64,000 nucleotides of DNA from Limnomonas spitsbergensis (taxonomy: Eukaryota > Chlorophyta > Chlorophyceae > Chlamydomonadales): NCBI GenBank assembly GCA_037349105.1, contig JAYJMM010000124.1:1212501-1276500 (forward strand), read 5' to 3'. The translations under genes were made by a program, and so were the position numbers. Shown here in pieces: positions 14,598 through 63,800 of the stretch (within the stretch, counting starts at the first letter, position 1; each line of letters opens with the position of its first letter). The notes under the pieces were generated by a model. The model worked only from the letters and a program-made list of their open reading frames with translations. It was not told the DNA's origin and ran no database searches.

Positions 14598-17500
14598 GTG
14601 GCCACGGGTAGAATTCCGTTGGATCTACCGTTGCAGACCGGTCGCGGTCGTTGCCGTTGCCGTACGCCGCAAAACCTGTTTACAACTAAACATCGCCCGC
14701 TGCAGAGATTTTTGCATCCAGTGACGATGAGACAGCTGAGCTGCAGCCAACGTGGCGCCTGTTTCTCCCGGCAGCCTGCTCGGACCCCAACACCCCGCCT
14801 GCTGGTACGGCGGTCGGCATCAGCGGCGACTGCCACATCGGGATATTCATCGGCCAGGGGACCGACGAAGCCGCCATCTGCATGGGACATGCTGCTTGTC
14901 AGAACTCTAGGCGGGAGGAGCGGCGCCGCGGGCAGCACCGCCTGCTTTAGAGCAGCTGCTGCGTGCCATGCGGCCGCCGCTGGGTCCCCTGCATGGGAAA
15001 CCACAGCTCCTGCCCCCCCTCCTCCTCCTTCTACTCTTCCTTCTACTGCTCCTCGGCCTCCACCGGATGAACAGCAGCATCGGGTGGGGCTCTTTGATGA
15101 TTGGTATAAAGCAGAGCCCCCCAAGCTAGTCCGGAGGATCGGCCCGGTAGAGGCTCGAGCCTTGGAAGGTGCGACACTTGGGTGCAGTCATGTTACACCA
15201 TGCATCGACTTGCATCATCATGCATATCTATTCAACGTCTTTAACACCACGTGACGCCATGCAACATCACATCACGTCGCGGTACGCCATGCAACACCAT
15301 GCAACACCCTGCGATGTCATGCAACACCATGCAACACCAACACAGCATGGGAATCTGTTACAACAACCCCATGCCGCACAATGCAACACCTTAAAAACCA
15401 TGTGAAGCCATGCAACACCAGGCAATACAAAACAACACCATGCATCACCATGCAGCATCATGTCACGTCGCAGTACACCATGCACAACCTGTGACACCAT
15501 GCAAGACCTTGCAACATCATGCAACACCAAAATAGCATGGGACTATGTTATAACAACCCCATGCCCATGCACAATGCAACACCAGACAGCACCACGCCAC
15601 GCCATGCGTCACCGTGTAGCACCAGGCAATATCAACGAACGATGGAATCTGAATTCTGCAATATGAATGACCCATGCTGGAGCTGCTCAACACACCTAGG
15701 CCGTGGCATGGTCGCGACCTCGGGACCCTCATAACCCTCTTTTCTCAAGCCCTGAACCTCAACTATTAAATTCTGAGACAAGAAAAGGTCGCGGCATGGT
15801 GACGACTTGAGACGTGGTGGCGAGCGAGCTCCTGATTCTGAGTGCCCCATTGGCGTCGCTGCGGATAGCTAGACCTTGTTAGCCCTCATTTCTGAAGCCC
15901 TGAACCTCAACCATTAAATCTGAGACAGGAAAGAGTTGCTGCATGGTGACGAGTTGAGACCCTTAAACCCTGAGCCGTTACCTTTCTAAAACCTGCAGGC
16001 AAGGGCGCCAGGGTGGTGGCGACCCGCAATGTGGCCGCGTGCTCTGATTTCCAAGCCTTGAACCCTGCAACCTTACTATATCAAGACCTTAAGTCTAGAG
16101 CCACATCGTGGTGACTGTCTGCAATCTGGCAGCGGGTGGGCTGCTGATGCTCAGCTCCCTGCTGCCGGAGAGGGTCTTAAACCTTAAACCCTCAACCCTC
16201 AACCTTCAACCCTGAACCCTTCACCCATAACCCCCAAACCATAACCCCCAACCCAGAACCCTCAACCCTCAACCCTCGACCCTCAACCCTCAACCCTCAA
16301 CCCTCAACCCTCAACCCTCAACCCTCAACCCCCAACCCTCAACCCTCAACCCTCAACCCTCAACCCTCAACCCTCAACCCTCAACCCTCAGCCCTCAGCC
16401 CTCAACCCTCAACCCTCAACCCTCAACTTTCAACCCTCGACCCTCGACCCTCGACCCCCCAACCCTCAACCCTCAACCCTCGACCCTCAAACCCCAACCC
16501 TCAACCCTCAACTCTCAACCCTCAACCCTAACCCAACCCAACATCATTGATGCAGGCAAGGGTGACGGCGTGGTTGCATCCCGCGATGTGGCGGCGGGCG
16601 AGTTCCTCATACTCAGCTCCCTAACCCTCAACCCTCAACCCTTAACCCCAACATAATGCAGCATTACCGATGCAGGAAGGGCCGCGCTGCGGTTGCGACC
16701 CAAGATGTGGCGGCGGGCAAGCTCCTGATACTCTGCTCACTGCAGCTGGCAATTGCCCCCAACCCCCAACCCCCAACCCCCAACCCCAACCCCCAACCCT
16801 CAACCCTTGACCCTCAACCCGCATCCCTCAACCCGCATCCCTCAACCCTTAACCCTACATAATGCAACATAACCGATGCAGGTAAGGGCCGCGGTGTGGT
16901 TGCATCCCGAAATGTGGCAGTGGGAGAGCTCGTGATGCTCTGGTCCCTGCAGCTGGCAAGGAACCCCAATACTCAAACGTCATTAATCAATCCTGAACCC
17001 TGAACCCTAACCTTACGCAACATCACCGATGCAGGCAAGGGCCGCGGTGTGGTTGCAACTCGAGACGTGGCGGCAGGCGAGCTCCTGATGCTTTGCGCTC
17101 CGCTGGCTGTGTTGCGGGGCGCTGAAGGGCAGCGTGTCGAGGTGGAGAAGCTGGTGGATCTGGTTCTGGAGCAGGGCACCCATATGGGCAGGTGAGTGAC
17201 CGCTTAAGGGACGACTACCAACCTTTCAATGATGGATCTGGTGATGAAGCAAGGCACACATATGGGCAGGTGAAGGCTTGTTAACCGGAAGGTTGAAACA
17301 AATTAAACAATGGATCTGGTTCTGAAGCAGGGCACACATATGGGCAGGTGAATGTCCACTAAAAGGAAGATTGCAAACCTTTTAATGATGGATCTGGTTA
17401 TGGATCAGGGCGCACATGTATGCACAAGTGAATGCTCGTTGAAAGGAAGGTTAAACAAAACAAAAAGTAAACAATGGATCTGGTTCTGGACCAGGGCACA

Positions 17501-20500
17501 CGTATGGGCAGGTGAGTGCCCGCTTAAGGGACAACTACCAAACTTTCAATGATGGATCTGGTGATGAAGCAAGGCACACATACGGGCAGGTGAAGGCTTG
17601 TGAACCGGAAGGTTGAAACAAATTAAACAAAGGATCTGGTTCTGAAGCAGGGCACACATATGGGCAGGTGAATGTCCACTAAAAGGAAGATTGCAAACCT
17701 TTTAATGATGCATCTGGTTATGGATCAGGGCGCACATGTATGCACAAGTGAATGCTCGTTGAAAGGAAGGTTAAACAAAACAAAAAGTAAACAATGGATC
17801 TGGTTCTGGACCAGGGCACACGTATGGGCAGGTTAATGCCCGCTTGGATTAAATCATGTGGGTTCTACAATGTAACCCTACACTCCCAACACTCTTATAT
17901 ACACTTGTTTACACTTGTATACACACTTCTAGACACTTAATTAGTTACACCCCAAACCTGTAGCCCTCTATCACCCTGAGACCCTGGACCCCCGCCAATC
18001 CCGGTGTTTCCACGATGTAGCGGAACTGTAGCTGAAGCACCCTTCACCTTAAACAAACATGCCTGCCGCCCGTACGCTCACCACCTTAAGAACCCAGGAC
18101 CTCTGCTCCCTCCCCTCACCCTCCCCCCACCCAAAGCGCCCTTAACCCCAACCCCCCAACCCTTCCTCCCCGACTGCTTTGACCAGCCCGCGCTCGCTTC
18201 CTCGAAACCCTGGACCCGCATCGATCCTGTTCACCTTGCCCCTAACACCCCCCTCACACCTCAGCACCTCAATCCTAAAGCAATTAACCCTGAACCCTTT
18301 ACCCTTAACCGTAAAGCAATCAACCATTCAACCCCAAAGCCTAAACCCCTACCCAATAGACCACTGAAGCCTTCCACCCAGTACAATTCGTGACTAATCC
18401 TATACTGATCTCTATACCCTAAACCCAAATCCTCCCGATGCCAAGGCTCAGAGAAGTCAGCGCTGGACCTCCTCCACGACCCTAAACCCTCAACCCACAA
18501 CCCTAAACCCTCAAGCTTACCCCTTACCCCTTTTACCTACACCCAAATCGATTTACCTGCTACACCAAACCCATGCACCTACTAAACCCTAAACCCCTAA
18601 CCTAATTCCCCAAGGTGGTTTCTTGACTACCTGTACGACGGCTCGGACAAGTCGACGCAGAAAATCCCCGACTTCGGCCGAGACGAGGAGGCAGAGGACA
18701 AGGAGGCCAAGGCTGCCGCGACCGCCGCTGGGGGATCTTTCGCAGAGGGCTCAGAGGGGTCGACAGGTGTGGCCCAGGAGTTTCGAAAACCTGAGATGAT
18801 GTAGAGGAGCGTGAGTTTGAGGATGTAGATTTCTTTACCTGTTTATCTGGCTCGGACTCTCTGAGTGCTCCTATAGGTTTGACAACAGAAGGGGCTCAGC
18901 AACCTTTGGAAATTCACAAAATGTATAAACCTTTCAGACATTCGGAATATAAACAGCTTATGAAGCATGGGAAATCAAGTGTCACAGGAGAGTCCCCTGT
19001 GATGCAACGTACTTAGTGCTTGGGTTGTGGGGAACTCGGGGACCGATCTCGGAGACGAGGGACGGTGGCAAGCTCTCTTGTTACAACGGGATACCAATCA
19101 GGCTACATTGTTTTCAAAAGAGCCTCACAAAGGTCGATACTGAATAACACAGTTAGCCGGCAACCGACAGGTGCACGCGGTTTAAATTTAAATTGCAAGG
19201 TACATGGCACACACCAGACACACGCCATGGAGAACAAAAACCCTTAGACATCTCAGAAAACTACAAAACATTAGAGCCTAAAAAATCCGAATGAACCTTA
19301 TAAGCGCGCAATGGCATGGGCGCCGCTGCTGTCTCATCCGAACCTGACAGCTCCGGGGAGGCGACAGGTGGGGCCTAGACACTTGTAAACTTTGGAGACC
19401 TACAAAACCATACATGGGAATAGCTAAATGTGTCCACCTCATCAACGGTCAGCCTTGAACCCTGAACCTCAAACCTTGAAACCTGAAACCTGAAAATAAA
19501 TGCTGGACCCCAAACCTGAAACCCTTACCCCTACACGTTATAAAATTGTTTTTCAGAGGGATAGGGCACCCGCTGCCTGCTGTCTGTGCTTCAGCTGACC
19601 CCCCCTCCTCCCCTCCATCTCTTCCCCTTCTCCCCGTCCCCCCTCTCCCTCCTCCTCTCCTACCCCCCCCTCCATCCCTCCTCCCCCTCCCCGTCCCCCT
19701 CTCCCTCCTCCTCTCCTCCTCCCCGTCCCCTCCCACTCACCCCCCTTCTCTTCAACCCTTCCTACCCTCATCTCTCACAAAGACGGCAAAGCACACGTCG
19801 GGAGCTGGCAGTGCACTTCCACGGCAGCAGCTGTGGCACGCGCCTGCTGTCCGTGCATCATTTGATCGACTCCCCTCCCCCTCCCTCTACCCCACCTCTC
19901 AACACATTTTTGCTCTCAGGCAGAAAAAAACCCTAGGGAAAGGGTACTCCACTTTGCGGCAGCGGATGTGGCCCAGCGCCTGCTGAACGTGTATCAGTTG
20001 ACCGACTCCCCTCCCCCCCTCGCCCCTTCATCCTCATTCTCACCCCCTCCCACCCTCTTTTTTGTTCTTAGGCGGCAAAGCACGCTCAGGAAAGGAGAAG
20101 TCCACTTCCGCAGCAGCGGCTGTTGCCCGGCGCCTGCTGTCAAAAAAGAGCGGTGGCGGCGGCGGTTTTGGCGGCAAGCCCAAGGCCGACGGGAAGGCGG
20201 GAAAGGCAGTATCCACCGGGGCCAAGGCGACGGGAACGGCGGCAGCGGCGGCCACAGGCGCCGGCGCGCAAGATCTAGAGTTCCCCGGCGGAGTCAATCG
20301 CTCCACGGCCAGGCGGGTTGCCAAGGCTGTCAAGTTTAACTGTTTCGGTGCGTTCAAATTTGAAAACCCTTAACCTTGTACAGCACAGTGGTAAAAGGTA
20401 TGACCCAGGGAGGTCGCAGGCCTTTTTTATATTGTTGGGTCTAGCCGAAGGTCGTACTTTTTCTTACCCAACCGTTGATGATTGCGGCCTACGGCTGCAG

Positions 20501-63479: not shown

Positions 63480-63800
63480 GTGAGAGGCTGGAACTCAATA
63501 CAATAATAAAAAACATAAATCAGCAAATTTAGTGGTGCGACGCTGGAATTCGATAAAAAAAAAACAATTAATGCATAAGTCAACAAATTGAGAGGTGAGA
63601 CGCCGGAACTCGTTAAAAATCACAAATCAACAATTTATCCCCAAAGTGATACGATGATTTGGTGATATCATAATGAATAGATAGATAGATAAATTAAGTG
63701 ATAAATACAGTGATTAAGTGATTAATACAGTAATTTAGTGATAAATACAGTAATTAAGTGATAAATACAGTAATTAAGTGATAAATACCGTGCAGAAAGC
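63480..63800. repeat. Donor copies and GTGATAAATACAGTAATTAA repeat
   Basis: After the 63,479 donor, GAGAGGTGAGACGCYGGAAC is copied near 63,525 and 63,590. Then a 20-bp unit GTGATAAATACAGTAATTAA repeats about five times at 63,695-63,790. Confidence 0.8.

What the first reader, a model, noticed from the sequence alone, without database searches (positions are those of the whole stretch)
14598..63800. Introns of both large genes are packed with degenerate copies of the adjoining exon edges
Around most exons of the SET gene and the unknown gene, the intron upstream holds one to eight tandem copies of the intron end plus the exon start. The intron downstream often holds copies of the exon end plus donor. 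The copies usually keep AG or GT, decay with distance, and are separated by CCCTAAA/TTTAGGG-like heptamers. The recurrence at exon after exon in two unrelated genes points to a general local mechanism. Candidates are telomerase- or replication-slippage-assisted break repair at exon edges, or RNA-templated repair. I know of no named element with this form.
Basis: partly seen in the sequence, partly recalled or inferred. Interest (0 to 1): 0.9.

Follow-up and report, generated by a model that had tools for sequence, protein, structure and literature searches.

The report
Tandem duplications straddling exon–intron borders
In a snow alga, short stretches spanning the borders between coding and non-coding gene parts have been copied side by side again and again, so introns fill with decaying copies of their neighbouring exon edges; the arrangement looks harmless to the protein and may show how introns grow.

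Summary
The window lies in a 260 Mb, 124-contig assembly matching the snow alga Limnomonas spitsbergensis. I rebuilt both genes (11 and 16 exons, each one open frame). Exon-start 60-mers recur in the upstream intron at 12 of 25 acceptors, downstream at 1 of 25. Exon-end 60-mers recur downstream at 8 of 25 donors, upstream at 1 of 25. Seven chaperonin loci elsewhere (47 exons) give 12, 0, 6 and 0. No dispersed copies of two tested edges were found. Acceptor copies lie 100-160 nt away in 19 of 25 families, carry about 60 nt of exon, and diverge like neutral DNA.

Best reading: recurrent tandem duplication of about 130 nt across splice junctions, tolerated because splicing keeps using the exon-proximal site, so surplus copies become intron. 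Telomere-like heptamers are common and strand-biased, but 11 of 24 acceptor units contain no C-rich one, which argues against telomerase as the general cause. Edges carry such duplications about three times more often than intron interior or random DNA; whether that is a true hot spot is unresolved.

The parts
14730..32346 (+). SET-domain gene, 11 exons (S1-S11); true start not determined
45913..63479 (+). unknown gene, 16 exons (U0-U15), no homologue found; both ends not determined
15782..17034 (+). 6 copies of acceptor side of exon S2 (17035-17191) in upstream intron
17192..17845 (+). 8 copies of donor side of exon S2 in downstream intron, 78-nt unit, 320-nt higher-order unit
19783..20071 (+). 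2 copies of acceptor side of exon S4 (20072-20347)
21377..21949 (+). 4 copies of acceptor side of exon S5 (21950-22046)
23123..23378 (+). 2 copies of acceptor side of exon S6 (23379-23483); periods 125 and 131 nt
27903..27990 (+). copy of whole exon S9 (27471-27545) plus donor, downstream; start approximate
29126..29175 (+). copy of donor side of exon S10 (28195-28940); a second ends near 31760
47528..47977 (+). 4 copies of acceptor side of exon U2 (47978-48148), 106-122 nt apart
48149..48366 (+). 2 copies of donor side of exon U2
48544..48850 (+). 2 short, weak copies of acceptor side of exon U3 (48851-48917)
49291..49421 (+). copy of acceptor side of exon U4 (49422-49526)
49595..49706 (+). 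copies of donor side of exon U4, 87-91 nt apart
51141..51536 (+). 2 copies of acceptor side of exon U6 (51537-51689)
51768..51818 (+). copy of donor side of exon U6, without matching intron part
51998..52287 (+). 2 copies of acceptor side of exon U7 (52288-52479)
54649..54932 (+). 3 copies of acceptor side of exon U8 (55546-55645), 108 nt apart, now 681-897 nt from the exon
56630..56965 (+). 3 copies of acceptor side of exon U10 (56966-57084)
57244..57307 (+). copy of donor side of exon U10
57766..58214 (+). 3 copies of acceptor side of exon U11 (58215-58357)
59038..59223 (+). most similar acceptor copy in the window (65 of 66 exon bases) of exon U12 (59224-59338), period 129 nt
59521..59831 (+). 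copies of donor side of exon U12, 93-nt and 184-nt units
61440..61493 (+). copy of donor side of exon U13 (61145-61232)
62329..62529 (+). 2 copies of donor side of exon U14 (62054-62247)

Best explanation
Ordinary but very frequent local tandem duplication, mostly of 100-160 bp, straddling splice junctions. At an acceptor the duplicated unit is the last ~30-120 nt of intron (where branch point, pyrimidine tract and AG lie) plus roughly the first 60 nt of exon. At a donor it is the exon end plus the intron start. After duplication the spliceosome keeps using the site nearest to the body of the exon, as expected when short exons between long introns are recognised across the exon. The mRNA is unchanged and the surplus copy becomes intron. 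It then drifts neutrally, is multiplied by later duplications, and is sometimes homogenised with the exon. Acceptor duplications with a period under about 100 nt are missing from the 25 families found, which suggests that splicing filters which duplications survive. SHOWN: head-to-tail local copies, polarity, size class, neutral-like divergence, recurrence in other genes, differing copy content between paralogs. INFERRED: exon-definition filter, repair or slippage origin, outward movement, conversion.
For: Polarity in the window, in 7 chaperonin loci (12/47 and 6/47 against 0/47 and 0/47) and in 200 kb of unselected DNA (10/112 and 9/112 against 3/112 and 3/112, the six wrong-way cases all in one of four blocks). 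Whole-genome DNA searches with edges S2 and U10 found copies only beside the exon. Repeated units cover intron and exon together. Acceptor periods: 19 of 25 within 100-160 nt, 0 of 25 under 100, against 8 of 22 interior duplications under 100. Divergence by codon position .156/.118/.252 fits neutral copies against a constrained exon. Using the nearest copy's acceptor would break the protein in 11 of 12 window cases. Paralogs L045/L049 differ in copy content: exon e4 has copies only in L049, matching their own exon at 9 of 11 and 7 of 9 informative sites. Under exon definition, splice sites closest across the exon are preferred; in minigenes with identical competing 5' sites the upstream one was used exclusively (PMC9225289, passages).
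Against: Edges carry long-period duplications at 33 of 158 points against 6.2% of interior points and 5.2% of random DNA, so uniform duplication plus a filter may not be enough. For 3' sites PMC9225289 shows a weaker effect than for 5' sites, and its data are human. No transcript data were used here. Some copies lack a matching intron part (U6 donor; L046:6338), and only 12 of 20 acceptor copies match over at least 70% of the period. In the paralogs the L049 copy of exon e2 resembles the L045 exon more than its own (4 sites against 1), so the copies' history is not a simple series of recent gains.
Confidence: 0.75

Rival explanations
1. Splice junctions are true mutational hot spots: breaks, nicks or template switches tied to transcription, splicing, R-loops or a positioned nucleosome duplicate about 130 bp around the junction, so introns grow from their ends.
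For: Narrow unit size, with the exon part independent of exon length.
Against: Constrained exons keep copies recognisable longer, and conversion may refresh them. When every array is counted, interior points are covered at 18.9% and the edges do not stand out (P 0.29). Random blocks vary from 1.6% to 13.6%.
Confidence: 0.3
2. Telomerase- or telomere-repeat-assisted break repair makes the copies, capping broken ends with CCCTAAA/TTTAGGG before rejoining.
For: Telomeres are (CCCTAAA)n at 6 of 19 contig starts. Heptamers are enriched in introns and oriented C-rich toward acceptors (56/70/96 by thirds), G-rich toward donors (46/36/13); the same in chaperonin introns (17/29/50; 33/19/14). Telomerase use at breaks is proposed for mammals (PMC2246262, abstract).
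Against: 6 of 12 window and 5 of 12 chaperonin acceptor units have no C-rich heptamer. Heptamers also occur in introns whose edges have no listed copies (for example S8-S9). The same polarity would follow from pyrimidine-rich acceptors and G-rich donor flanks.
Confidence: 0.07
3. RNA-templated copying: pre-mRNA fragments are reverse-transcribed and re-inserted beside their source.
For: Copies stay close to transcribed exons and are in sense orientation.
Against: Tandem direct repeats with intron/exon junctions; no dispersed copies of two tested edges; higher-order array duplication is DNA-level behaviour. Not tested: a scan for exon-exon junction copies.
Confidence: 0.03
4. The extra acceptors and donors are kept because they help splicing (spare splice sites, decoys, alternative first parts of exons).
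For: AG in 24/35 and GT in 16/22 copies; AG in 8/12 and GT in 5/6 chaperonin copies. In extended alignments AG positions match at 52/55 and GT at 30/32 against .79 and .70 in nearby intron, though this count is biased toward matches next to the anchor. One window unit (U11, period 135) could be used in frame.
Against: 24/35 is about what neutral decay at roughly 80% identity per base predicts (my estimate); the codon-position pattern fits drift; use would break the protein in 11 of 12 cases.
Confidence: 0.07
5. Assembly artefact.
For: Repeat-rich region assembled from PacBio CLR reads.
Against: Copies differ by 2-32% in their exon part and sit within introns of at most 3.2 kb, while read L50 is 33 kb with 63x coverage and Illumina polishing (PMC11228838, passages). 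The frames stay open. Raw reads were not seen.
Confidence: 0.02

Closest known systems
[quoted passage not shown] passages read)
   Same: Tandem duplication carrying branch site, pyrimidine tract, 3' splice site and exon start in one unit.
   Different: There one duplication created a new intron and exon; here many recurrent duplications only lengthen existing introns and leave the protein unchanged.
Rogers model of intron gain (AGGT duplication; Drosophila cases in PMC2891723, passages read)
   Same: Short tandem duplications interact with splice sites.
   Different: That model duplicates a proto-splice site inside an exon; here the unit straddles an existing splice junction.
Minisatellite arrays in introns
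   Same: Head-to-tail units, higher-order units, decay and expansion.
   Different: Units of about 130 nt anchored on, and containing, the exon edge, with strong polarity.
Interstitial telomeric sequences / telomerase at breaks (PMC2246262, abstract and outline)
   Same: Telomere-motif heptamers inside chromosomes.
   Different: C-rich heptamers are absent from 11 of 24 acceptor units.
Tandem duplications from repair of adjacent nicks in plants (Schiml et al. 2016, seen only as a reference-list entry in PMC8316200; content recalled)
   Same: A possible source of short tandem duplications.
   Different: No link to splice junctions is known to me.

Membership tests
Local tandem (direct) duplication | Copies head to tail on the same strand beside the source | tested here: met
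   (0/25 against the reverse complement of the upstream flank)
Local tandem (direct) duplication | Similarity covers the whole period (exon part plus intron part) | tested here: inconclusive
   12 of 20 nearest acceptor copies keep similarity over at least 70% of the period; several others match only over the exon part
Introner elements | Near-identical copies dispersed over many genes | tested here: not met
   two edges tested: exon-edge sequence matches only locally; the other U10 matches are the heptamer part. The search sees only close copies
Tandem-duplication intron gain (Rogers) | The duplication creates a new intron | tested here: not met
   the open frame is complete without the copies, which lie inside the introns of that model
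Telomerase-made interstitial telomeric insertions | Telomeric repeats in every unit | tested here: not met
   11 of 24 acceptor units have no C-rich heptamer
Exon duplication / mutually exclusive exons | Whole exon with both splice sites duplicated | tested here: not met
   exon part 22-77 nt of exons 67-276 nt in 20 of 20 acceptor copies aligned; laxer alignments reach 93-95 nt. Exception: the S9 copy holds the whole 75-nt exon
Functional alternative splice sites | Copies used in transcripts | not testable with these tools
   no transcript data held here

The most novel reading that the evidence does not exclude
Splice junctions in this alga are duplication hot spots: a mutational process coupled to splicing, transcription or nucleosome position copies about 130 bp around each junction, so introns are born at their own edges, move inward as they decay, and most long-intron sequence is fossil exon edge.
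Probability: 0.3. Interest if true: 0.87.

Novelty: new variant of a known kind. Interest (0 to 1): 0.62.

Why it matters
Intron lengthening is usually credited to transposons (recalled). Here a sequence-local process adds splice-site-bearing units to introns in gene after gene while sparing the protein. It leaves datable copies, gives a natural test of which duplicated splice sites a spliceosome tolerates (no acceptor spacing under about 100 nt in 25 families), and may show introns growing from their ends.

Tried and rejected
Rejected: introners or transposons; telomerase as the general cause; whole-exon duplication; bacterial or phage origin (the best named SET homologues are chlorophyte; a repeat ORF from the same window had no phage match; no Rfam hit at gathering thresholds). 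The unknown gene (837 aa searched, without U0) had no homologue at E 0.001 and no Pfam domain, so its model rests on the open frame and phases alone. Selection on AG/GT is not settled: one search looks neutral, one search shows AG 52/55 and GT 30/32 above nearby intron but with a biased count. A plain count of self-similar 60-mers does not single out the edges: intron interior reaches 177-181 of 381 because of short-period arrays and edge-derived copies; only long-period families separate edges from interior. One search had a fault (self matches) and was discarded; searches stopped on errors and were rerun; one search did nothing. In ten literature searches no listed title or abstract start described this pattern; the lists were capped and subscription journals are not held. 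Dropped rows: one search tested 47 of 50 exons; one search tested 112 of 131; one search aligned 20 of 25 acceptor families (the far ones left out); for I left out 7 of 29 interior families as edge-derived (with them 11 of 29, not 8 of 22, are under 100 nt). L049 and L050 were fetched because L045 and L048 already showed copies; the five first-chosen loci alone give 6/29, 0/29, 3/29, 0/29. Seven further chaperonin loci with two or more matches (C61, C84, C114, C102, C22, C4 and C37 near 1.65 Mb) and the single matches on C82 and C97 were not obtained.
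Full report
What is there. The window is G000:C124:1212501-1276500 of a 260.2 Mb, 124-contig genome. Size and contig number match the published Limnomonas spitsbergensis assembly (260.248 Mb, 124 contigs; PacBio CLR, 63x, read L50 33 kb, Illumina-polished; mean intron 788 bp; PMC11228838, abstract, passages and the sections on repeats and genome architecture). None of what I read there mentions exon-edge copies. I placed exons by hand from open frame, phase and splice signals: SET gene S1-S11 and unknown gene U0-U15, both without internal stops. 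The best named homologues of a 429-aa piece of the SET protein are chlamydomonadalean (top: 54% identity over 98%, C. eustigma), and Pfam finds the SET domain. The unknown gene has no homologue at E 0.001.

Test of the observation. With exon-only 60-mers, so that intron composition cannot help, exon starts recur within 700 nt upstream at 12 of 25 acceptors and downstream at 1 of 25 (S9, a 75-nt exon). Exon ends recur downstream at 8 of 25 donors and upstream at 1 of 25 (S5, a 97-nt exon). Against the reverse complement of the upstream flank both give 0 of 25 (individual z-scores up to 26). Mid-exon 60-mers give 5 and 7 of 27, all in exon S10, which carries coding repeats; the 17 windows in six other exons give none. 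Iterated alignment lists 35 acceptor and 22 donor copies, at 13 and 11 of 25 edges, and 17 of 27 exons have at least one. AG is kept in 24 of 35 and GT in 16 of 22, close to what neutral decay would give. In extended alignments AG and GT positions match more often than nearby intron (52/55 and 30/32 against .79 and .70), but that count favours matches beside the anchor. Nearer copies tend to resemble the exon more (40 against 21 pairs).

Anatomy. Nearest acceptor copies in the window lie 113-156 nt from the exon in 10 of 12 families with score 20 or more (others 194 and 681). Including the weaker U3 family and the chaperonin loci, 19 of 25 fall within 100-160 nt and none under 100, while 8 of 22 interior duplications are under 100 nt (Fisher P 0.001). 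Over 20 of these families the exon part is 22-77 nt (median 60) and does not depend on exon length (rho 0.21, P 0.36); laxer alignments reach 93-95 nt. Copies include the intron end, so the unit straddles the junction; 12 of 20 match over at least 70% of the period. Arrays also multiply as blocks: a 320-nt block at 96% match downstream of S2 and paired units upstream of U2. Divergence by codon position is .156/.118/.252, as expected if copies drift freely and the exon drifts mainly at silent sites. Using the nearest copy's acceptor would shift the frame or add a stop in 11 of 12 window cases, so splicing must pass the copies by.

Generality. A Pfam Cpn60_TCP1 search of the whole genome gave 72 exon matches. 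In five loci fetched from these, 29 HMM-located exons gave 6 upstream copies of exon starts and 3 downstream copies of exon ends, with 0 and 0 in the wrong direction. With two paralogous loci added, 47 exons from a small gene finder (codon scores cross-validated between the two window genes; its splice-site matrices came from both) gave 12, 6, 0 and 0; binomial P 8e-6 for 18 against 0. In 200 kb of unselected DNA, with exons from the same finder and no homology check, the rate is lower: 10/112 and 9/112 against 3/112 and 3/112 in the wrong direction, with mid-exon controls 4/51 and 4/51. All six wrong-way cases lie in block C119; the other three blocks give 5/80 and 4/80 against 0/80 and 0/80, mid-exon 1/35 and 1/35 (leaving C119 out is after the fact). 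The window is therefore a rich example of a general feature.

Paralogs. Loci L045 (C39) and L049 (C99) hold paralogous chaperonin genes; seven aligned exon pairs are 78-94% identical. Exon e1 has a copy only in L045 (5 of 7 informative sites like its own exon). Exon e4 has copies only in L049, like their own exon at 9 of 11 and 7 of 9 informative sites, so they arose after the genes split, or were since homogenised with their exon and lost in the other gene. Exon e3 has a copy at 108 nt in both; the L049 copy is 56/57 identical to its own exon, although the acceptor before it (gcttgcag) resembles that of the L045 copy (gctcgcag) more than its own exon's (cacgtag), which suggests conversion. 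Against a simple story, the L049 copy of exon e2 is more like the L045 exon (4 sites) than its own (1) (all).

Are edges special? After masking short-period arrays, an ungapped long-period duplication (70-400 nt) spans 21 of 79 acceptors and 12 of 79 donors in the two window genes and seven chaperonin loci. Interior points are covered at 6.2% by families not linked to an edge; if edge-derived arrays count, 18.9%, and then edges do not stand out (P 0.29). Random 200 kb is covered at 5.2% (blocks 1.6-13.6%) and the window's intergenic part at 3.4%. I treat a hot spot as possible, not shown.

Heptamers. Contig starts show (CCCTAAA)n telomeres at 6 of 19 contigs looked at. Related heptamers are enriched in window introns (7.4 C-rich and 3.1 G-rich per kb, against 0.6 and 0.8 in exons and 0.9-2.3 and 0.2-1.3 in three intergenic stretches) with clear polarity: C-rich rising toward the acceptor (56/70/96 by thirds), G-rich toward the donor (46/36/13). 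The same holds in chaperonin introns (17/29/50; 33/19/14; both P under 2e-5, treating clustered heptamers as independent). Yet 6 of 12 window and 5 of 12 chaperonin acceptor units contain no C-rich heptamer, so heptamers look like passengers of the duplicated intron end rather than the engine. Their orientation is also what pyrimidine-rich acceptors and G-rich donor flanks would select (inference).

Locality. A 119-nt S2 query matched only its exon and one copy in the whole genome. A 169-nt U10 query matched its exon and three local copies; its other 16 matches cover only query bases 1-47, the heptamer part, several near contig starts. These searches miss diverged copies (saw one of six), so they exclude close dispersed copies only.

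Mechanism and its limits. The simplest account is recurrent tandem duplication of roughly nucleosome-sized DNA by slippage, nick or break repair, filtered by splicing. Human and minigene data show that sites closest across the exon are preferred under exon definition, clearly for 5' sites and more weakly for 3' sites (PMC9225289, passages). Short acceptor periods are missing here, as a filter predicts. Unshown steps: the DNA lesion, the splicing choice in this alga, and conversion.

Noticed in passing
introns of both genes, e.g. 28123-28191, 50916-51082, 58422-58777: Degenerate telomere-motif heptamers are intron-enriched and strand-polarised (C-rich toward acceptors, G-rich toward donors), also in chaperonin introns on other contigs.
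   Followed up: partly
28941-31660 and 52480-54600: Large 52-53-nt minisatellites begin just after donors S10 and U7 and reuse donor-like sequence (GTGCGGTACAGG; GTGGGTGGG), as if intron starts themselves were amplified.
   Followed up: no
36435-38320: Intronless ORF of 99-nt (33-aa) tandem repeats, ankyrin-like by eye (not tested), between the two genes.
   Followed up: no
810-1195 and 9160-9749: The same 19-nt minisatellite (ATGGGCCTGCTTGCTCCAC, rotated) at two places about 8 kb apart.
   Followed up: no
46244-46363 and 60483-60700: Short elements with TCCGGCTGAACCTGTGC between CATGGTAGCAC and GTGCTACCATG ends; looks like a dispersed inverted-repeat element.
   Followed up: no
L007, L008, L009, L015 (contig starts): Several contigs start in GGCATC- or GGGGCATC-type satellite rather than telomere.
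   Followed up: no
L045 and L049: Pair of chaperonin paralogs with conserved exons and diverged introns: a natural clock for intron turnover.
   Followed up: partly
L029-L033 (C119:4000001-4050000): Block with non-polar repeats of predicted exons (exon starts, middles and ends recur on both sides), unlike the other three random blocks.
   Followed up: no
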